This document shows positions 42,700 to 51,416 of a stretch of 64,000 nucleotides of DNA, piece by piece. This stretch comes from Candidatus Tidjanibacter gallistercoris. Its GTDB lineage: Bacteria; Bacteroidota; Bacteroidia; Bacteroidales; Rikenellaceae. The stretch is taken from the NCBI GenBank assembly GCA_019114205.1, contig DXFY01000014.1, positions 30,606 to 94,605 of the forward strand, read 5' to 3'. A program made the translations under genes and the position numbers. The notes under the pieces are model-generated. The model saw only the letters and a program-made list of their open reading frames with translations, did no database searches and was not told the DNA's origin. The stretch's first letter is position 1; every line of letters starts with the position of its first letter.

Positions 42700-44955
42700 C
42701 TACTGCATGCTGCCCAACATGTCGTTGGAAGTATCCTGGTTTTCCATGAAGGAACGCTGCGACTTGAGCAGGTTGCGCGACTGGAGCACCATGGTTTTGG
42801 TTTCATTCAGGATGGTGAGGTACAGCATGCTGGCCTTCGTGCTCGTCGCCTTGTTCTGGATGCGGCGCAGTTGGTTTTTCACGGCATCGTCTATCGTGAC
42901 GAACAACTCGTCGCGCATCTCCAGCACGACGTTCGTGTCGGAATAGTCGTTATCGTTGAGCATCAATATAATGCGGGCGTATATTTCCGAAACGCGGTCG
43001 TTGATTTTCAGCAGGTCTTCTACTTGTTCCTCGCTCATGCCCCGGTGGTTGTTGTCGATGTGCTCGAAACAGGGGCGGGTGATGTGCACCAGCGCCTTAG
43101 ACATTTCGCTGATGTAATCCACCACCTGTACGTAGAAGTGGCCCGCTTCGATGTAATTGTCCTGGAGTTTCTGGAGCGTGGGCAGCAGGGCGTACTTCTT
43201 TTCGCGTGCGTTGTAGAAGAGGTCGTTCGACTCGCGTACCATTTCGCGCAGTGTCCGGCGGTCTTCATTCAGCGTCGCCATGATGGTCTTGCTGTATATT
43301 CCGGTGGTTTTGGTCATGACGCCGCTTATTTCGGCGATAAGGTTGCACATCACTTCCTGCGTGCTGTTGCCCGAAGCGCTGACGATTTCTTCGGTCTTGT
43401 GCTCTTTCGCCTTGCGGCGCTTGTGGGTGATGGAGCTTTGGATGAACATGCCCACGCACAGGAGCGAGATGACGATGACGGCCCACGTGCCTCCCCACAG
43501 CAGGGCGTAGGTCACCACCAGTGCGATGACGAAGGCGATGAGCGCCGTGACGAACCAGCCTGCGATGACCGTGACCACGCCCGTTATCCGGTATACGGCG
43601 CTTTCGCGGCCCCACGCCTTGTCTGCGAGCGAACTACCCATGGCTACCATGAAGGTGACGTAAGTGGTCGAAAGCGGCAGTTTGAGCGAAGTAGCCGTGG
43701 CGATGAGGATGGAGGCGACGGTGAGGTTCACCGTGGCGCGTATCAGGTCGAAATGGGCGCTGCCTGCCTTGGGGCGCAGCGGAATGAACCGTTTGTTGAT
43801 GGCGCGCTGGAGCGCTTCCGGAGCGTGGTCTTCGTACCACCGGTTGCAGGTGACCGCCATCCGGACGATGGAGCGCGAGAAAATGGTGGAGCCGAAACGT
43901 TCCGTCCCTTCGTCCTGTTTGGCGAGGTTGATTTCCGTTTCGCTCACGCTCTGCGCCTTCTTGGAAGTCCACAGCGTGATGACCATGACTACGCCCGCAG
44001 CGAGCAGCAGCAGGTGGTTGGCCACGACCGGTTCGCTGAGCTTGCCCATCATCATCGTGTCTCCGCCGCCTGCGGCGAGGGCGATTTTATAGGAATCCAC
44101 GCCGGCTATCGGTACGCCGATGAAATTGACCAGGTCGTTCCCCGCGAAGGCCAGAGCCAGCGAGAAGGTACCCGCCAGAATCGTCACCTTGAGGATGTTC
44201 ACCCTGGCCAGCTGCAGCAGGAACATGACGAGCGAACTCAGGGCGAAGAATCCCGCAAGTACCGGCAGCATGTTTGCCGAGAGCGTGTCGAAGAACCGTT
44301 CGCTGAAAATTCCGGAGTCCTGCAGGCCCTTGAACAGTGCGAAGTAGGCGATGGCGGTGAAGGCGATACCGCACCACAGGGCGCCGAAGCGTTTCAGCAT
44401 CTTTTGGTAACGGAACGTGAAGATGAGCCGGCTGATGAACATGACCACGGCACCGACCACGAAAGCGATTGCCACCGAGGCCAGAATGCCAGATATGATG
44501 ACGAGCGCCTTGCCCGAATTGATGTAGTTGGACATGTCGGCCGCCGTGAGTGCGGGGTCGGCGCTTATCTTGAGCGAAGTGACCGCCACCGCGGCGCCCA
44601 GCAGTCCGAAGACGAGGGAGACCGTCGTCGAGGTGGGCAGCCCGAACGTGTTGAACAGGTCGAGCAGGATGACGTTGGCGAACATGACGCCCAGAAAAAG
44701 CATCATGACATCGCGGAACGTGAACATCTCCGGATAGAACACCCCGCTGCGGGCGACCTCCATCATGCCGCTGGAGGTCATCGTTCCGAGCAGAATGCCG
44801 ACGGATGCTATGGTGAAGATGACTTTGCGAGAGGCGGCCTTGGAGCCTATGGCCGAATTGAGGAAGTTGACTGCATCGTTGGAAACCCCTACGACAAGAC
44901 CGAGGATTGCCAGAACCAATAAAATGACTATGATTACGGTGTAAATAGTCTCCAT
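42700..44955 (-). CDS. Inorganic phosphate transporter (PiT) fused to a PhoU-like domain
   Basis: A 751-aa inner-membrane protein. The first 500 residues are a PiT-family phosphate permease: the two halves each carry the signature, seen as SNDAVNFLNSAIG with TFGLPTSTTVSLVFG and as FAGNDLVNFIGVPIAG with LKLPLSTTYVTFMVAMG. After the last helices a basic linker (about 515-530) leads to a helical region (about 540-730) resembling PhoU, a regulator of phosphate uptake. The fusion suggests that transport and its control are built into one chain. The gene is single, convergent with the FKBP genes and divergent from the suf operon. Confidence 0.93.
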   Translation of the reverse strand: METIYTVIIVILLVLAILGLVVGVSNDAVNFLNSAIGSKAASRKVIFTIASVGILLGTMTSSGMMEVARSGVFYPEMFTFRDVMMLFLGVMFANVILLDLFNTFGLPTSTTVSLVFGLLGAAVAVTSLKISADPALTAADMSNYINSGKALVIISGILASVAIAFVVGAVVMFISRLIFTFRYQKMLKRFGALWCGIAFTAIAYFALFKGLQDSGIFSERFFDTLSANMLPVLAGFFALSSLVMFLLQLARVNILKVTILAGTFSLALAFAGNDLVNFIGVPIAGVDSYKIALAAGGGDTMMMGKLSEPVVANHLLLLAAGVVMVITLWTSKKAQSVSETEINLAKQDEGTERFGSTIFSRSIVRMAVTCNRWYEDHAPEALQRAINKRFIPLRPKAGSAHFDLIRATVNLTVASILIATATSLKLPLSTTYVTFMVAMGSSLADKAWGRESAVYRITGVVTVIAGWFVTALIAFVIALVVTYALLWGGTWAVIVISLLCVGMFIQSSITHKRRKAKEHKTEEIVSASGNSTQEVMCNLIAEISGVMTKTTGIYSKTIMATLNEDRRTLREMVRESNDLFYNAREKKYALLPTLQKLQDNYIEAGHFYVQVVDYISEMSKALVHITRPCFEHIDNNHRGMSEEQVEDLLKINDRVSEIYARIILMLNDNDYSDTNVVLEMRDELFVTIDDAVKNQLRRIQNKATSTKASMLYLTILNETKTMVLQSRNLLKSQRSFMENQDTSNDMLGSMQ

Positions 44956-44984
44956 GGATTAGCGTTCTGATGGAAAATTTGGGA

Positions 44985-44992
44985 CAAAGTTA
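44985..44992 (-). promoter_or_regulatory. -7 box of the phosphate transporter gene
   Basis: Minus-strand TAACTTTG matches TAnnTTTG, about 30 bases before the start. The nearest TTTG upstream is 23 bases away, longer than the usual spacing. Confidence 0.5.
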
Positions 44993-45112
44993 ATCCATAA
45001 TTTCGAATGCCGTAGCAAAAGAGGTGTCAAATATCGATGATTCGTCGGCGACCGGCGGCCGGTACGCGGAGCCGTTGCAGGACGGGCGGGCACCGTTATT
45101 TTATGCATAAAT

Positions 45113-45143
45113 TTTGCACATCGGCGGCAGTTGGTTAATTTTG
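45113..45143 (+). promoter_or_regulatory. sufB: Promoter of the suf operon
   Basis: TTTG (45113-45116), a 19-base spacer and TAATTTTG (45136-45143) fit the Bacteroidota consensus. The leader is about 30 bases and ends in GGAGGT just before the ATG. Confidence 0.8.
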
Positions 45144-45176
45144 TGGTTCGGATGAGAACCACCGTTCGGAGGAGGT

Positions 45177-46628
45177 ATGGAAGACAGCAACAAAATCATA
45201 CGCGATATTGCGGGCCAAGAATACAAATACGGTTTCACGACCGATATCGATACGGAAACCATTCCGCGCGGACTGAGCGAAGAGATTGTCCGGCTCATAT
45301 CGCATAAGAAGGGGGAACCGGAGTGGATGACCGCCTACCGGCTCGACGCTTTCCGCCACTGGCAGACCATGAAGCTGCCCGCATGGGCCCATCTCGACAT
45401 TCCGGAAATCGATTTCCAGGATATCATCTATTACGCCGCCCCCAAGGCGAACCGGGGTAAGGAGGGGGGGACGGCGGATGACATAGACCCCGAACTGAAG
45501 AAGACGTTCGACAAGCTCGGCATTCCGCTCGAAGAGCAGCTCGCTCTGAGCGGCGTGGCGGTGGATGCCGTCATGGACTCGGTGTCGGTCAAGACGACGT
45601 TCCGGGAAACGCTCGCCGAGAAGGGTATCGTCTTCTGTTCGATGAGCGAAGCGATTCGGGACTATCCGGAATTAGTGCGCAAATACCTCGGAAGCGTGGT
45701 GCCCTATACCGACAACTTCTATGCTGCGCTCAATGCGGCGGTATTTTCCGACGGGTCGTTCTGTTATATTCCGCAGGGAGTGCGCTGCCCGATGGAGCTC
45801 AGCACCTATTTCCGCATCAATGCCGCCGGTACGGGGCAGTTCGAGCGGACGCTGATAGTGGCCGACGAGGGGGCTTACGTGAGTTATCTGGAAGGGTGTA
45901 CGGCACCGCGGCGCGACGAGAACCAGCTCCATGCCGCCGTGGTGGAAATCGTGGTGCTGAAGGATGCGGAGGTGAAATACTCCACCGTGCAGAACTGGTA
46001 TCCGGGCGACCGGGAGGGCAGGGGCGGCATTTACAATTTCGTCACCAAGCGCGGGATATGCCGCGGGGCGAACGCCCGCCTGTCGTGGACGCAGGTGGAG
46101 ACCGGTTCGGCCATCACGTGGAAGTATCCGAGCTGCATCCTCGCAGGGGACAACAGTACGGCGGAATTTTATTCGGTGGCGCTCACCAACAATTTCCAGC
46201 AGGCCGACACGGGTACCAAAATGATACATCTGGGGCGCAACACCCGGAGCCGCATCGTTTCCAAAGGTATTTCGGCCGGGCGCAGCCAGAACAGTTACCG
46301 GGGGTTGGTGCAGGTGAATCCGGGCGCGGAGAACGCCCGCAACTTTTCGCAGTGCGATTCGCTGCTGATAGGCGACCGCTGCGGGGCGCACACCTTCCCG
46401 GTCATCGACGTGCGGAATCCCGGCGCCGTGGTGGAGCACGAGGCTACGACGTCCAAAATCAGCGACGACCAGCTCTTCTACTGCAACCAGCGCGGGCTGG
46501 ATACGGAGGAGGCCGTGGGGCTCATCGTGAACGGCTATGCCCGGGAGGTGCTCAACAAACTGCCGATGGAGTTCGCCGTGGAAGCGCAGAAGCTGCTTTC
46601 GGTGAGCCTGGAGGGAAGCGTGGGTTAG
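45177..46628 (+). CDS. sufB: Fe-S cluster assembly protein SufB
   Basis: Scaffold subunit of the SufBCD complex, on which iron-sulfur clusters are built in the cytosol. The 483-aa protein has the SufB hallmarks: [25 protein letters not shown] in nearby form early on, [18 protein letters not shown] in the middle, and the C-terminal core [20 protein letters not shown] with the conserved Cys and the [11 protein letters not shown] helix for binding SufC. Normal length. A strong SD-like GGAGG precedes the start. The next two genes are not suf genes: sufC follows only after two paralogous barrel-like genes, which is unusual. Confidence 0.97.
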
Positions 46629-46715
46629 CTCCGGGGAGGGGCAAAGCGCCGGGCTCCCGACCCGGTAAGGAGGCGGCCGGCGAACTACTTCGATACTACC
46701 AAACCTAAAATAGCC

Positions 46716-47324
46716 ATGAAGAAAATCGTATTGTTTTGCGTCGCCTTATGCGTAACCGCGGCAGGAGTGCATGCGGCTTCGCCGAAGTCGGATGCAGCAG
46801 ACAGGGTGCCCCGTCGGAATGTCATCACCGGTTCGCTGGAGTTTTTTCCCATGGACCTGTTCCAGTTGTGGGGAGGCCCTGCGGTGTCTTTCGAGTACGC
46901 CTATAACGTCAGGGGGAAGTTCTGGGCCGGAGGCCGGATGAACGCCCAATATAGTACGTTGTGGGGAGATTCGTTTAACGGCGATGTGCTTCAGAATTAT
47001 TGGAGGAATACCCTGTACGGTTTGGGGTACTGGGACTTTCCGGTGGCAAAGGATTGGCTGTCGTTCCGTCTCGGTGCGGGAGTCGGAATAGGCTTTCATT
47101 CGGGCAAACAGATATCGGGCGTCATGGTCGCTCCCTATTTGATGGTACGCGCCGAATGGGTGGTTCGGCTGACGCGGAATTTCGGCATCACCGTAGCACC
47201 GCTCGTGTTAGGCCCTTCCGGTGTGGAGTGGTCGCCCTGGGCGCCGCATACGGCCACAGGTGGCAGAGGCAACCTTGTACAGGCGACTGTGCTGGGGCGC
47301 ATCGGCTTTTTCGGGCGGTTCTGA
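46716..47324 (+). CDS. Secreted barrel-like protein, suf-operon paralogue 1
   Basis: A 202-aa protein I cannot assign to a named family. It has a Sec signal (MKKIVLFCVALCVTAAGVHA). The rest alternates hydrophobic and aromatic residues and ends in IGFFGRF, the aromatic C-terminus typical of outer membrane beta-barrels; eight strands would fit the length. It shares with its neighbour the segments GKFWAGGR, APYLxVRxEW, TRNFG, GGRG and IGFFGRF. It lies 87 bases after sufB and is in the same direction as all suf genes. Nothing in its sequence (no Cys cluster, no catalytic motif) links it to Fe-S chemistry. Role unknown. Confidence 0.8.
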   Translation: MKKIVLFCVALCVTAAGVHAASPKSDAADRVPRRNVITGSLEFFPMDLFQLWGGPAVSFEYAYNVRGKFWAGGRMNAQYSTLWGDSFNGDVLQNYWRNTLYGLGYWDFPVAKDWLSFRLGAGVGIGFHSGKQISGVMVAPYLMVRAEWVVRLTRNFGITVAPLVLGPSGVEWSPWAPHTATGGRGNLVQATVLGRIGFFGRF

Positions 47325-47331
47325 GGACGGC
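47310..47331 (+). repeat. 22-bp direct repeat, copy 1
   Basis: This stretch, spanning the last codons and stop of paralogue 1, is identical to 48159-48180 at the end of paralogue 2. It marks the duplication that created the pair. Confidence 0.85.
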
Positions 47332-47352
47332 TCTGAGAAGGAGGTACGGAAT

Positions 47353-47547
47353 ATGTGGAAGTGCGCAGCGGGCTTTTTGGCAGCGTTTGCCGTGCAGGTG
47401 CGGGAGGTGCTGCCGGTAGGACCGGGCATACGGGATAAAATTTATGGGAGGCGTGCAACGCGGACAGCGTGCGAAACGTCAGAAGGAAAAACCGTCGGCG
47501 AAAGTTCCGGCGGATGTTTGTCGAACCTTGAAAACGTTTTGCCATGA
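47353..47547 (+). CDS. Possible small protein between the two suf-operon paralogues
   Basis: A 64-codon ORF starting MWKCAAGFLAAFAVQ, with a hydrophobic N-terminus and no known family. Evidence for translation: a perfect Shine-Dalgarno AAGGAGGT (47338-47345) seven bases before the ATG, and a stop that overlaps the next start codon as ATGA. Against it: composition after residue 25 is unremarkable and this phylum does not rely strongly on Shine-Dalgarno pairing. It may instead be chance sequence in a 219-base gap, or a truncated third signal-peptide-like unit. Confidence 0.35.
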   Translation: MWKCAAGFLAAFAVQVREVLPVGPGIRDKIYGRRATRTACETSEGKTVGESSGGCLSNLENVLP

Positions 47548-48173
47548 AAAAGTGTTTGTTCGTTACCCTCCTCCTCGCAGGTATGGCAGCCGGTATGCTG
47601 CACGCTGCACCGCCCGTGCTGCGGTCGGAGCATGCAGAAAAGGAAATGGGCCGCAATGCGGTCTCCGTGTCCGGCGGTTTTGCGATGGGATTCGGAGATT
47701 CGTACATGTTCGGGCCGTTCGGGTATGCGGAATATGCCCGCAACGTGAAGGGAAAATTCTGGGCCGGAGGCCGGCTGAACATGCAGGTCAATTGGATGGG
47801 GGTCACATGTCAGCCTTCGGACATGCTCGACGGCTACCTGCTGACGACGGCCTACGGGATTGCATACTGGGAACTGCCGGTAGTGCGGGAGCGGCTGGCG
47901 TTCCGTGCCGGAGGAGGCATCGGGGTGGGGATACACACCGGTACTCAGATACGGGGAAGTACGGTGTTGGCACCTTACCTTCTGGTGCGGATGGAATGGG
48001 CGCTCTATTTTACGAGAAACTTCGGGATGACTTTTGCTCCGATACCCGTTTACCCGGTAGGCACGTCGCAGCTGGAGTGGACGCCTTGGGCGCCCGTTAC
48101 GAAGAACGGCGGACGGGGAGGCATCGTAAAGATAAATATGGCTTTCCACATCGGGTTCTTCGGGCGGTTCTGA
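47544..48173 (+). CDS. Secreted barrel-like protein, suf-operon paralogue 2
   Basis: A 209-aa paralogue of the preceding barrel-like protein, with signal MKKCLFVTLLLAGMAAGMLHA and the same ending IGFFGRF. Shared landmarks are NVKGKFWAGGRLN, TAYGIAYWELPV, GIGVGIHTG, APYLLVRMEW, TRNFGMTF and WTPWAP. Differences are spread over the chain, with a few-residue length change near the loop between strands, so the copies are old enough to have diverged. The 3' end and 22 bases around the stop are identical to copy 1. It lies 51 bases before sufC. Function unknown; an outer membrane location is inferred from the signal and C-terminal Phe. Confidence 0.82.
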   Translation: MKKCLFVTLLLAGMAAGMLHAAPPVLRSEHAEKEMGRNAVSVSGGFAMGFGDSYMFGPFGYAEYARNVKGKFWAGGRLNMQVNWMGVTCQPSDMLDGYLLTTAYGIAYWELPVVRERLAFRAGGGIGVGIHTGTQIRGSTVLAPYLLVRMEWALYFTRNFGMTFAPIPVYPVGTSQLEWTPWAPVTKNGGRGGIVKINMAFHIGFFGRF

Positions 48174-48180
48174 GGACGGC
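48159..48180 (+). repeat. 22-bp direct repeat, copy 2
   Basis: Identical to 47310-47331, spanning the stop codon of paralogue 2. Confidence 0.85.
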
Positions 48181-48224
48181 CCGAAGAAACGGGGAACAGG
48201 AGAAGGATAACATATAGTTCTGGG

Positions 48225-48983
48225 ATGAAAAACATACTTACGGTAAAGGGACTGCATGCCTCGATAGACGGCAAGGAGATATTGCGCGGCATCGACTTCA
48301 CGGTCAATGCGGGCGAGGTGCATGCCATCATGGGCCCGAACGGTTCGGGCAAGAGTACGTTCGCCTCGGTGCTCGCGGGCAGTCCGCGCTTCGAGGTGAC
48401 GGCCGGCGAAGCGGTCTACGACGGGAAAGACCTGTTCGGAATGAACATCGAGGAGCGTGCCCGTGCGGGTATCTTCCTCGGATTCCAGTATCCGGTGGAG
48501 ATACCGGGGGTGAGCATGGCCAACTTCATGAAAATCGCCGTGGCGCGCCGCCGCGAGTACCTCGGACTTCCCGCACTCTCTTCGGGCGAATTTCTGAAGA
48601 TGATGCGCGAGAAGGGGAAGGTCGTGGAGCTCGACAGCAAGCTCACGGGCCGTGCCGTGAACGAGGGCTTTTCGGGCGGCGAGAAGAAGAAGAACGAAAT
48701 CTTCCAGATGGCCATGCTGGAGCCGGAACTCGCCATACTGGACGAGACGGACAGCGGGCTCGACATCGACGCGCTGCGCATCGTGGCGCAGGGGGTGAAC
48801 AAGCTGCGCACGAAGGAGAACGCCACCGTCGTGATAACCCATTACCAGCGGCTGCTCGATTACATCGTTCCCGACTTCGTGCACGTGCTCTACAAAGGGC
48901 AGATTATCCTGTCGGGCGACAAGGAGCTCGCCCTGAAGCTGGAGCGCGAGGGGTACGACTGGCTGATAAACCGATATAAATGA
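48225..48983 (+). CDS. sufC: Fe-S cluster assembly ATPase SufC
   Basis: ABC-type ATPase that drives conformational change of the SufBCD scaffold; it is cytosolic, not a transporter. The 252-aa protein has Walker A GPNGSGKSTFAS, the SufC-specific Q-loop area FLGFQYPVEIPG, the signature FSGGEKKKNEIFQM, Walker B LAILDETDSGLD and the switch His in VITHYQRLL. Full length. Its stop overlaps the sufD start by four bases (ATGA), so sufC and sufD are translated together. It is separated from sufB by two unrelated genes. Confidence 0.97.
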   Translation: MKNILTVKGLHASIDGKEILRGIDFTVNAGEVHAIMGPNGSGKSTFASVLAGSPRFEVTAGEAVYDGKDLFGMNIEERARAGIFLGFQYPVEIPGVSMANFMKIAVARRREYLGLPALSSGEFLKMMREKGKVVELDSKLTGRAVNEGFSGGEKKKNEIFQMAMLEPELAILDETDSGLDIDALRIVAQGVNKLRTKENATVVITHYQRLLDYIVPDFVHVLYKGQIILSGDKELALKLEREGYDWLINRYK

Positions 48984-49999
48984 GCGACGCCATGAAGGAG
49001 ACATCCGATTTGACGGGCATCTGCACGGGCGGTGTCCTCGAAGTGCGGGACGGACAGTACGTGCTGCCCGTTCCATCCGGGCATTCCGGCATCGAAGCAT
49101 TGGCGCTGGATGCGGCCCGGACGCGGTATCCCGATACGGTCGCACGTTTCGGAACGTTGCCGCAGCAGGCCGCGGGGCTGCTGGTGCGGATACCCGACGG
49201 GATGCAGGTGTCCGAACCGCTGTGCCTCTCCTTTACCGGAACGGGCGGTTGTACCGTGGCCGTACATGCGGGCAGGGGGGCAACGGTCGAGCTGTTGTTT
49301 CTGCTCGCGGACGGCGCTGCACTGAGGCGGCACATCGTTGCGGAGAACGGCTCCTCGCTCCGGATACGGGAGGTCGCCGCAGGCGGTGCGGACGGCATGC
49401 TCTCCGTCGCCAGCACGATGCAGGTGGGCGAAGGAGCCCGTGTCGATACCGTGACCGTGGAGCTCGGCGGAGGCCGGGCGGAACTGCATTATGCGACCGT
49501 GCTCGAAGGTGCGTCGGCCGAAGCGCTGTATGCCGGCCTTTTCATGGCTGCCGACGGCGAGCGCAAGGAGGTGGACGTGCGCGTGGAGCACCTTGTGCCC
49601 GACTGTCGCAGCGACGTGCTGATGAAAGGCGTGGCTTCCGGGACGGGATTCGGCTCGTTCGGCGGGATGGTTTATGTGGCACAGGATGCGCAGCGTACGG
49701 TCGCCTACCAGCAGAGCCGCAATTTAGTGCTGGGAGGCCGGGCGCGTATCGTCACCGCGCCTCAGTTGGAAATCTATGCCGACGACGTGCGGTGCAGCCA
49801 CGGGGCGACGGTCGGCCAGATGGACGACGAGGCGGTGTATTACATGCGTCAGCGCGGGCTCAGCGAGGCCGAGGCCCGCGGCCTGCAACTGACCGGTTTC
49901 GTGAACGAAGTCGTGTCGCGGCTCGGCGACGGGCCGTTGGCGGAGGAGGTGCTGCGCAGGGCCGGACAAAAGATTGCCGCGCTCCAGCAGTCGGCATAG
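48980..49999 (+). CDS. sufD: Fe-S cluster assembly protein SufD
   Basis: Partner scaffold subunit of SufBCD, 339 aa, shorter than the roughly 420-aa E. coli protein mainly in the N-terminal helical part. The beta-helix core is seen as repeated V-x-V strands from residue 80 on. The conserved C-terminus has AYQQSRNLVLGGRARIVTAPQLEIYADDV in nearby form, CSHGATVGQMDDEAVYYMRQRG and a final helix. The catalytically relevant His in CSHGATVG is present. It overlaps sufC by four bases and is followed by sufS after about 200 bases. Confidence 0.93.
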   Translation: MSDAMKETSDLTGICTGGVLEVRDGQYVLPVPSGHSGIEALALDAARTRYPDTVARFGTLPQQAAGLLVRIPDGMQVSEPLCLSFTGTGGCTVAVHAGRGATVELLFLLADGAALRRHIVAENGSSLRIREVAAGGADGMLSVASTMQVGEGARVDTVTVELGGGRAELHYATVLEGASAEALYAGLFMAADGERKEVDVRVEHLVPDCRSDVLMKGVASGTGFGSFGGMVYVAQDAQRTVAYQQSRNLVLGGRARIVTAPQLEIYADDVRCSHGATVGQMDDEAVYYMRQRGLSEAEARGLQLTGFVNEVVSRLGDGPLAEEVLRRAGQKIAALQQSA

Positions 50000-50198
50000 G
50001 CAGGTAGGGCGCAGGAACTGTTCGGACAGCTCGTGCGGTGGTCTGCGGAGTGTCGGGTGCCCGACACGCTGTGGGCCGGAACCGGATGCGTGGGGCGGGC
50101 GGGGTTACCCTTTGGGCTGCTGCCCGGCAGACGGAGCAGGCAGCGCACAATGTATGCGGACGGGGCGGAACCCGGCCGCCGGAGAAAAGGATACGGAA

Positions 50199-51416
50199 AT
50201 GTTTGACGTAAATGAAATAAGGAAGGATTTCCCGATACTGTCGCGGAAGGTTTACGGGAAGCCGCTGGTATATCTCGACAGCGCGGCCACGAGCCAGAAG
50301 CCGCGGCGTGTCATCGACTGCGAACGCAGGATGTACGAGGAGCTGAACGGCAACGTGCACAGGGGCGTGCATTACCTTGCGGAGCAGGCGACCGAACGCT
50401 ACGAAGAGGCCCGCGAGCGTATCCGGGACTTCATCGGGGCCGCCTCGCGCGAGGAAATCGTCTTTACGTCCGGGGCGACGGCTGCCGTGAACGCCGTGGC
50501 GTACAGCTACGGCGAACTCGCTTTCGGGGAGGGCGACAACATCGTGGTCTCCGAAATGGAACACCACTCCAACATCGTTCCGTGGCAGCTGGCATGTGCC
50601 CGCCGGGGTGTGGAACTGCGCGTGCTGCCTTTCGACGATGCGGGAGAACTGCTGGTCGGACGGTTGCCGGAGCTTGTGGACGACCGCACGAGGCTGGTGG
50701 CCGTCACGCAGGCTTCCAACGTGCTGGGTACCATGCCGCGGCTCGATGCGGTGGTACGCGCGGCGCATGCCGTCGGAGCCGTCGTGCTGGTGGACGGCTG
50801 CCAGGGCATCGTCCACGGCGGCGTGGACGTGGGGGCGCTCGGCTGCGACTTCTATGTCTTTTCGGGCCACAAGCTCTATGCGCCGAACGGCATCGGCGTG
50901 CTGTACGGCCGGCGCGAGCTGCTGGAGCGGATGCCGCCGTTTCTGGGGGGCGGCGATATGGTGAAGAAGGTACGCTTCACGGGAACCACGTTCGCCGACC
51001 TGCCGTTGAAGTTCGAGGCGGGGACGGCGAATTATGTCGGGGCGATTTGCCTCGGCGAGGCCGTCGAATATATAAAGGGCATCGGTACGGACGGCATCGC
51101 CGCGTACGAACGCGACCTTGCGGCGTATGCCGCCGAAAGGCTCGGTACCGTCGAAGGACTGCGCATCTACGGAACGACTCCGGACAAGTGCAGCATCCTG
51201 TCGTTCAACGTGGAAGGAGTGCATGCCTACGACATGGGCATGATACTCGACAAGCTCGGCATCGCCGTGCGTACCGGAGCGCACTGCGCCGATCCGGTCA
51301 TGGACCATTACGGGGTGACGGGCATGGTACGTGCCTCGTTCGCCTTTTACAATACGGTGCAGGAGGCCGACGCGCTTGCTGCCGGTATCGAAAGGGCCGT
51401 GCGCATGCTGCGGTAG
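50199..51416 (+). CDS. sufS: Cysteine desulfurase SufS
   Basis: PLP-dependent enzyme that takes sulfur from cysteine and supplies it as persulfide to SufBCD. The start is the ATG giving MFDVNEIRKDFPILSR; 75 upstream codons are open but unlike the family. The 405-aa product has the PLP-binding Lys in FSGHKLYAPNGIG (about residue 224), the SAATSQKP motif near residue 27, and the catalytic Cys in RTGAHCADPVMDHYG (about residue 362). It is a group II desulfurase, which usually needs SufE or SufU; neither is encoded here. Last suf gene of the operon. Confidence 0.96.
   Translation: MFDVNEIRKDFPILSRKVYGKPLVYLDSAATSQKPRRVIDCERRMYEELNGNVHRGVHYLAEQATERYEEARERIRDFIGAASREEIVFTSGATAAVNAVAYSYGELAFGEGDNIVVSEMEHHSNIVPWQLACARRGVELRVLPFDDAGELLVGRLPELVDDRTRLVAVTQASNVLGTMPRLDAVVRAAHAVGAVVLVDGCQGIVHGGVDVGALGCDFYVFSGHKLYAPNGIGVLYGRRELLERMPPFLGGGDMVKKVRFTGTTFADLPLKFEAGTANYVGAICLGEAVEYIKGIGTDGIAAYERDLAAYAAERLGTVEGLRIYGTTPDKCSILSFNVEGVHAYDMGMILDKLGIAVRTGAHCADPVMDHYGVTGMVRASFAFYNTVQEADALAAGIERAVRMLR

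What the first reader, a model, noticed from the sequence alone, without database searches (positions are those of the whole stretch)
46629..48224. Two tandem paralogous secreted barrel-like genes inserted between sufB and sufC
SufB, SufC and SufD form one cytosolic complex, and their genes are usually adjacent. Here two related genes with Sec signals and an outer-membrane-like C-terminal Phe separate sufB from sufC, all in one direction from one good promoter, with no terminator seen between them. The two copies share GKFWAGGR, APYL-VR-EW, TRNFG and IGFFGRF and a 22-bp identical repeat across their stop codons. An envelope protein pair wired into Fe-S assembly expression is unexpected and could signal iron acquisition, oxidative-stress response of the envelope, or insertion that tolerated the operon.
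Basis: partly seen in the sequence, partly recalled or inferred. Interest (0 to 1): 0.75.

Follow-up and report, generated by a model that had tools for sequence, protein, structure and literature searches.

The report
Surface barrel genes inside iron-sulfur operon
In a bacterium of the genus Tidjanibacter, two related genes predicted to make small outer-membrane barrels sit between the iron-sulfur assembly genes sufB and sufC; their family was found directly after sufB in 5 of 23 genomes of the genus, and it is likely a fast-changing set of surface proteins that would ride on suf expression rather than help to build iron-sulfur clusters.

The parts
45113..45143 (+). promoter-like site TTTG-N19-TAATTTTG before sufB
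   Evidence: exact match to the consensus quoted in PMC7366714 (passage seen); an exact match lies about 62-76 nt before sufB in 6 of 6 genomes compared; 3 of 2000 shuffles have one
45177..46628 (+). sufB
   Evidence: NF008773 and TIGR01980 above cut-off
46716..47324 (+). T1: predicted signal peptide and eight-stranded outer-membrane barrel, 202 aa
47306..47341 (+). predicted RNA hairpin over the T1 stop codon, UGA as its loop; contains one copy of the 22-nt repeat
   Evidence: -16.9 kcal/mol, z -1.9, 8 of 200 shuffles as good; repeat at 47310-47331
47544..48173 (+). T2: paralogue of T1, predicted eight-stranded outer-membrane barrel, 209 aa
48156..48188 (+). predicted RNA hairpin over the T2 stop codon, UGA as its loop; contains the second copy of the 22-nt repeat; no T-run behind it
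   Evidence: -24.2 kcal/mol, z -4.07, 0 of 200 shuffles as good; inverted repeat I1
48225..48983 (+). sufC
   Evidence: TIGR01978 above cut-off
48980..49999 (+). sufD, overlapping sufC by 4 nt
   Evidence: PF01458; TIGR01981 202 bits against cut-off 222
50199..51416 (+). sufS
   Evidence: TIGR01979 above cut-off

Best explanation
T1 and T2 belong to a family that, in the 23 genomes of the genus searched, lies directly after sufB wherever it was found; they are predicted to be small eight-stranded outer-membrane barrels, are likely transcribed from the sufB promoter, and would act as fast-diversifying surface proteins rather than as parts of the Fe-S machinery. Shown by sequence: position, direction, 44% identity, C-terminal Arg-Phe, and a promoter-like site before sufB but none in the gap. 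Predicted: signal peptide, barrel fold, and long variable loops outside with short turns inside. Inferred: one sufB-T1-T2-sufCDS transcript; stop-codon hairpins that shield or trim the barrel mRNA and set how much RNA passes on into sufC; loop diversity arising by duplication, recombination between copies and loss, favoured by pressure from phages, predators or host. The place is likely kept because sufB and sufC are not tightly coupled (median gap 66 nt, against 6 nt for sufC-sufD), so cargo could enter there and gain steady, perhaps stress-responsive expression at little cost.
For: Position: 5 of 23 genus genomes (5 of 11 near-complete ones) carry the family, 11 copies, all directly 3' of sufB. 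Within 268 Rikenellaceae genomes only two further, distant matches appear. Fold. Loops: pairwise identity 13-36% in the four predicted outer loops against 42-65% in strands, six of 13 rows. Turnover: between G000 and G004 sufB/sufC have dN 0.03 and dS 0.55/0.44, the barrels dN 0.39-0.58 and dS about 1.8-2.2 (3 of 4 pairs computable). Recombination: P0003 differs from T2 at 22 of 209 residues, all within 84-150, 0 of 20000 permutations; P0005 equals G004 copy 1 for residues 1-105 and G004 copy 2 for 99-174. Decay: one in-frame stop each in a G007 and a G015 copy. Promoter. Cargo slot: sufB-sufC gap >=300 nt in 11 of 100 genomes, sufC-sufD 2 of 100 (Fisher p 0.018). [quoted passage not shown]
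Against: No RNA or protein data. The recombinant proteins come from public assemblies whose DNA I could not see, so assembly error is possible. sufD-sufS gaps are occupied about as often (7 of 87; p 0.62), so sufB-sufC is not a unique slot, and 6 of the 11 occupied cases fall in one family (no correction for kinship). Nine of 11 copies are open, so some constraint acts. In the conservation count the N-terminal linker (23%) is as variable as the loops, and one loop (36%) is close to one inner turn (38%). The G007/G015 copies lie behind their own terminator-like hairpin, so suf-driven expression is not general. The dS trend along sufB/sufC shows no simple exchange signature. One of five stop-codon regions folds worse than its shuffles.
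Confidence: 0.58

Rival explanations
1. The barrels work with the Fe-S system: they would bring in iron or haem, or mend the envelope under oxidative stress, and are placed in the operon so that both respond together.
For: Found directly after sufB in all five genomes that have them; momL in the same slot in Muricauda is reported as induced with suf by iron lack and H2O2 (PMC5484670, passages).
Against: Eight-stranded barrels of this size are usually closed to large substrates (general knowledge); Pfam shows no TonB-dependent receptor domain in T1 or T2; the family was not found in 18 of 23 genus genomes (6 of 11 near-complete ones), including G014, whose sufB and sufC lie 23 nt apart; in G007/G015 the array is cut off from sufC and lies behind a terminator-like hairpin.
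Confidence: 0.15
2. A neutral insertion: the barrels serve some envelope role unrelated to where they sit, and the place is an accident that the operon tolerates.
For: The junction holds unrelated genes in other Bacteroidota; sufB-sufC is loosely spaced (median gap 66 nt).
Against: 11 of 11 copies found lie after sufB, even in the genomes where the operon has split; no copy was found elsewhere in the 23 genomes.
Confidence: 0.22
3. An exchanged cassette: barrel alleles move between strains by recombination through the conserved sufB and sufC flanks, like a capsule or serotype locus.
For: Barrel dS (about 2) far exceeds flank dS (0.44-0.55) between G000 and G004; the barrel tree sets G000, G001 and G004 against G007 and G015, whereas the sufB and sufC trees join G000/G004 with G007/G015 and leave G001 outside.
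Against: Old paralogues with differential loss give the same picture; GC3 of the barrels is below the flanks but follows each host (0.51 in G001 to 0.78 in G007), so no recent import from afar; dS does not rise on both sides of the barrels.
Confidence: 0.05

Closest known systems
momL-suf cluster of Muricauda olearia (PMC5484670; passages seen)
   Same: A gene foreign to Fe-S assembly lies between sufB and sufC in a Bacteroidota suf operon, closely linked to both.
   Different: momL is a secreted lactonase and a single gene; here a tandem pair of predicted barrels that differ strongly between relatives.
OmpA/NspA/OprF-type eight-stranded outer-membrane barrels
   Different: 9-11% identity in those alignments, no Pfam or NCBIfam barrel match, no OmpA-type periplasmic domain; Foldseek TM-scores are moderate (0.39-0.56 by query length in the 17 best rows).
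Neisseria Opa proteins (PMC3960869; passages seen)
   Same: Eight strands with four outer loops; variation strong in loops; recombinant-looking variants.

Membership tests
Eight-stranded outer-membrane barrel (structural class) | eight-stranded antiparallel barrel | tested here: met
   predicted only: DSSP lists 10 and 12 strand pieces, eight strands after joining broken ones; best matches are such barrels
Eight-stranded outer-membrane barrel (structural class) | C-terminal aromatic residue | tested here: met
   Arg-Phe invariant in 13 of 13 rows
Eight-stranded outer-membrane barrel (structural class) | Sec signal and location in the outer membrane | not testable with these tools
   the N-terminus looks like a type I signal (KK, hydrophobic core, HAA) by eye; no signal predictor was run; location needs fractionation
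Known Pfam or NCBIfam barrel family | match above the curated cut-off | tested here: not met
   no barrel family listed: T1/T2 at E <= 10, 13 alignment rows against Pfam at E <= 1
Opa-like variable adhesins | variable outer loops changed by recombination | tested here: inconclusive
   loops less conserved than strands; P0003 and P0005 look recombinant, DNA not seen
Opa-like variable adhesins | CTCTT coding repeats for phase variation | tested here: not met
   no tandem repeat in 46600-48250, no CTCTTCTCTT in the window
Cargo gene between sufB and sufC (momL type) | unrelated gene between sufB and sufC, same direction | tested here: met
Cargo gene between sufB and sufC (momL type) | co-transcription with suf | not testable with these tools
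   promoter match before sufB only and no strong classical terminator in the gap are indirect

The most novel reading that the evidence does not exclude
The sufB-sufC junction of Bacteroidota is a recurrent docking site for envelope and redox genes, and in Tidjanibacter it houses a contingency locus: a tandem array of surface barrels whose outer loops are reshuffled by recombination and whose expression is tied to Fe-S stress through the suf promoter and stop-codon hairpins.
Probability: 0.3. Interest if true: 0.72.

Novelty: new variant of a known kind. Interest (0 to 1): 0.52.

Why it matters
If right, a core metabolic operon serves as the fixed address and promoter of a variable surface-protein array. 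That would link iron or redox stress with what phages, predators and the host meet at the cell surface, and it gives a simple test for why genes foreign to a pathway sit inside core operons. It also extends the published momL case to a recurrent pattern in the phylum.

Tried and rejected
Tried and dropped. (1) Barrels as members of a named family: no Pfam or NCBIfam barrel match; solved-structure sequences gave only antibody chains at E 0.39 or worse. (2) A remnant third copy in the T1-T2 gap (64-aa ORF 47354-47547): BLAST gave chance-level matches only. (3) Phase variation by repeats: none; the homopolymer scan listed one 6-T and one 5-G run in T1 and one 5-G run in T2. (4) Truncated or frameshifted public proteins P0007-P0010 as proof of on/off switching: P0008 and P0010 change frame more than once or carry extra residues, so sequencing error is likely; none of the four is counted as evidence. 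(5) Exchange through the flanks: dS falls along sufB from 0.90-0.96 to about 0.28-0.30 (0.35 in the last 240 nt) and along sufC from 0.81 to 0.20, no simple pattern. (6) Known RNA families in 44900-50300: none. (7) The first tblastn with a wrongly framed SufS query gave SufS identities that are too low; corrected values are. (8) Literature: eight searches; in the listings shown, which for searches are only a part of the papers found, I saw no paper on barrels at suf; most subscription papers are not held. Dropped rows: 44 of 148 phylum genomes without a SufB or SufC match; G309 and G364 (other gene order); G308 left out; 13 of 100 without SufS in reach, and one of the 87 SufS hits scores far below the rest (173 against 545 bits and more), one gap there is negative (G305, -217, counted as not occupied); four rows left out of the barrel tree (P0003, P0004, P0005, P0011); loop figures use 6 of 13 rows; copies with a stop left out of all alignments. 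Gaps rest on longest open frames, so starts may be off.

Full report
What is there. The gap 46629-48224 lies exactly between sufB (45177-46628) and sufC (48225-48983), followed by sufD and sufS, all on +. It holds T1 (202 aa) and T2 (209 aa), 44% identical. The 22-nt exact repeat across the stop codons is real. In the own genome no further copies were found (E up to 10).

Where the family occurs. One contig of a same-genus genome (G001) is titled 'uncultured Tidjanibacter sp.'. With the 13-row profile, 5 of 23 genomes of the genus (5 of 11 near-complete ones) have the family: G000 two copies, G001 one, G004 two, G007 three, G015 three. All 11 lie directly 3' of sufB. Of 268 Rikenellaceae genomes, 7 have a match at E 1e-4 or better: these five and two distant ones, G026 and G262; no sufB or sufC was seen on the stretches of those two matches, and the G262 relative lies between genes matching carboxynorspermidine synthase (below that model's cut-off) and carboxynorspermidine decarboxylase. 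One weak match in another family of the order, G046, has E 0.003. A scan of named genome contigs gave one locus, the G001 record. Three protein searches returned 14 distinct proteins, four of them truncated or frameshifted.

Two arrangements. In G000, G001 and G004 the order is sufB, barrel(s), sufC, with 51 nt before sufC in each. In G007 and G015 the order is PiT transporter, sufB, three barrel copies, Xaa-Pro peptidase, while sufC-sufD-sufS sit on other contigs. There sufB is followed by a strong hairpin with a T-run (-54.3 and -44.8 kcal/mol). sufC there has a TATCTTTG box just upstream, but the scan found no full two-box promoter with up to one mismatch per box within about 250 nt of sufC in either genome, none before the G007 array, and one imperfect site before the G015 array. 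G014 has sufB and sufC 23 nt apart and no barrel. The sufC and sufB trees join these six genomes and pair G000 with G004 and G007 with G015; they disagree on G001 and G014. The barrel tree instead sets G000, G001 and G004 against G007 and G015. So the barrels were gained before or during this radiation and lost in G014, or gained or exchanged more than once; I cannot tell which.

Expression. The site TTTG-N19-TAATTTTG lies 64 nt before sufB. An exact match to the consensus (TTTG at -33, TAnnTTTG at -7, quoted in PMC7366714, one passage seen) lies about 62-76 nt before sufB in all six genomes compared; 3 of 2000 shuffles of the window stretch have one. None lies in the three gaps of the window, 357 nt in all. 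The simple scan lists only weak terminator-like sites in the gap.

The stop-codon hairpins. The 22-nt repeat is not just shared coding sequence. In T2 the RNA is predicted to fold into a 10-bp stem plus a 4-bp inner stem whose three-base loop is the stop codon UGA (-24.2 kcal/mol, z -4.07, 0 of 200 shuffles as good). T1 forms the same shape with UGA as its loop (-16.9, z -1.9, 8 of 200), although its 3' arm differs in sequence. G004 copy 1 (-28.0, z -2.85) and G001 (-17.7, z -2.0) also fold well around the stop but not with UGA as the loop; G004 copy 2 does not (z +2.0). No T-run follows the T2 hairpin, so a classical terminator is unlikely; a role as RNA end protector or partial attenuator is inference.

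Diversification. Between G000 and G004 sufB and sufC are 94% identical as proteins (dN 0.03; dS 0.55 and 0.44), while the barrels are 43-53% identical with dN 0.39-0.58 and dS 1.8-2.2 in three pairs, the fourth not computable. The copies are therefore old paralogues that were kept and lost differently, or were exchanged. Public protein P0003 equals T2 except for 22 residues, all within 84-150; no permutation of 20000 is as clustered. P0005 is G004 copy 1 for residues 1-105 and G004 copy 2 for 99-174; the two copies share no exact DNA longer than 16 nt in G004, which makes a short-word assembly chimera less likely. One G007 copy and one G015 copy carry a single stop. GC3 of the barrels is below that of their flanks but follows each host. 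This is the pattern expected of a surface protein under varying pressure; what that pressure is remains open.

The slot. To see whether the place is special I measured it across the phylum. Of 148 genomes drawn evenly (completeness 90% or more), 104 have both SufB and SufC. Two have another gene order; of the remaining 102, 90 have gaps of 269 nt or less and 12, the window's genome included, have gaps of 396 nt or more. I read all 11 other long gaps: each holds at least one open frame in the suf direction. With Pfam: NADPH-dependent FMN reductase in G359 and G375 (and in G002 of the window's genus), SPFH/Band 7 with ArsC in G314 (and SPFH with an Arc-like protein in G030 of the window's family), PNPOx in G325 and G422, GNAT in G386, 23S rRNA intervening protein in G433, PDDEXK_3 in G303, and in G344, G394 and G409 one family of small lipoprotein-like proteins without a Pfam match (29-39% identical). 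As a control over 100 of the 101 other genomes, gaps of 300 nt or more occur in 11 of 100 at sufB-sufC, 2 of 100 at sufC-sufD and 7 of 87 at sufD-sufS; Fisher p 0.018 and 0.62. So sufB-sufC is more open than sufC-sufD but not than sufD-sufS; median gaps of 66, 6 and 18 nt suggest that tight coupling of sufC and sufD explains part of it. Six of the 11 fall in one family (f29), two in f28, two in f41 and one in f45, so kinship inflates the counts.

Known case. In Muricauda olearia the lactonase gene momL lies between sufB and sufC, and the authors report co-transcription with suf under iron lack and H2O2 and call the place unique (PMC5484670, passages). The survey here shows that cargo in this junction is recurrent. 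Neisseria Opa proteins are the nearest functional likeness for variable eight-stranded barrels (PMC3960869, passages), a likeness only: no coding repeats occur here.

Verdict. A lineage-specific family of predicted surface barrels at a recurrent cargo slot of the suf operon. Its link with Fe-S assembly is most likely one of shared expression, not of shared chemistry.

Noticed in passing
window 47354-47547: A 64-aa open frame with a Shine-Dalgarno-like stretch before it fills most of the T1-T2 gap and its stop overlaps the T2 start (ATGA); no similarity to the barrels found.
   Followed up: partly
window 48980-49999; L015, L016: SufD diverges much faster than its partners: 65% identity to G004 and 47% (aligned part) to G001, where SufB and SufC keep 91-94%.
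   Followed up: no
window 45177-46628 and 48225-48983 against L015: Synonymous divergence falls steeply along both sufB (0.90-0.96 to about 0.28) and sufC (0.81 to 0.20), which hints at mosaic ancestry of the locus.
   Followed up: partly
L063 2819-6413: A distant barrel relative and a NPDGTHTVIN-repeat protein lie between genes matching carboxynorspermidine synthase and decarboxylase in another Rikenellaceae genome: again an envelope-like gene inside a metabolic gene pair.
   Followed up: partly
L066 186-569, L067 209-628, L068 169-597: A family of small lipoprotein-like proteins without a Pfam match sits between sufB and sufC in three genomes of one family.
   Followed up: partly
L017, L018, L024, L026, L065: In G007 and G015 the suf operon is split: sufB with barrels on one contig, sufCDS on another, with a terminator-like hairpin after sufB.
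   Followed up: yes
P0007-P0010: Public proteins that begin like G004 copy 1 and then change frame or end at different codons; real null alleles or sequencing errors.
   Followed up: partly
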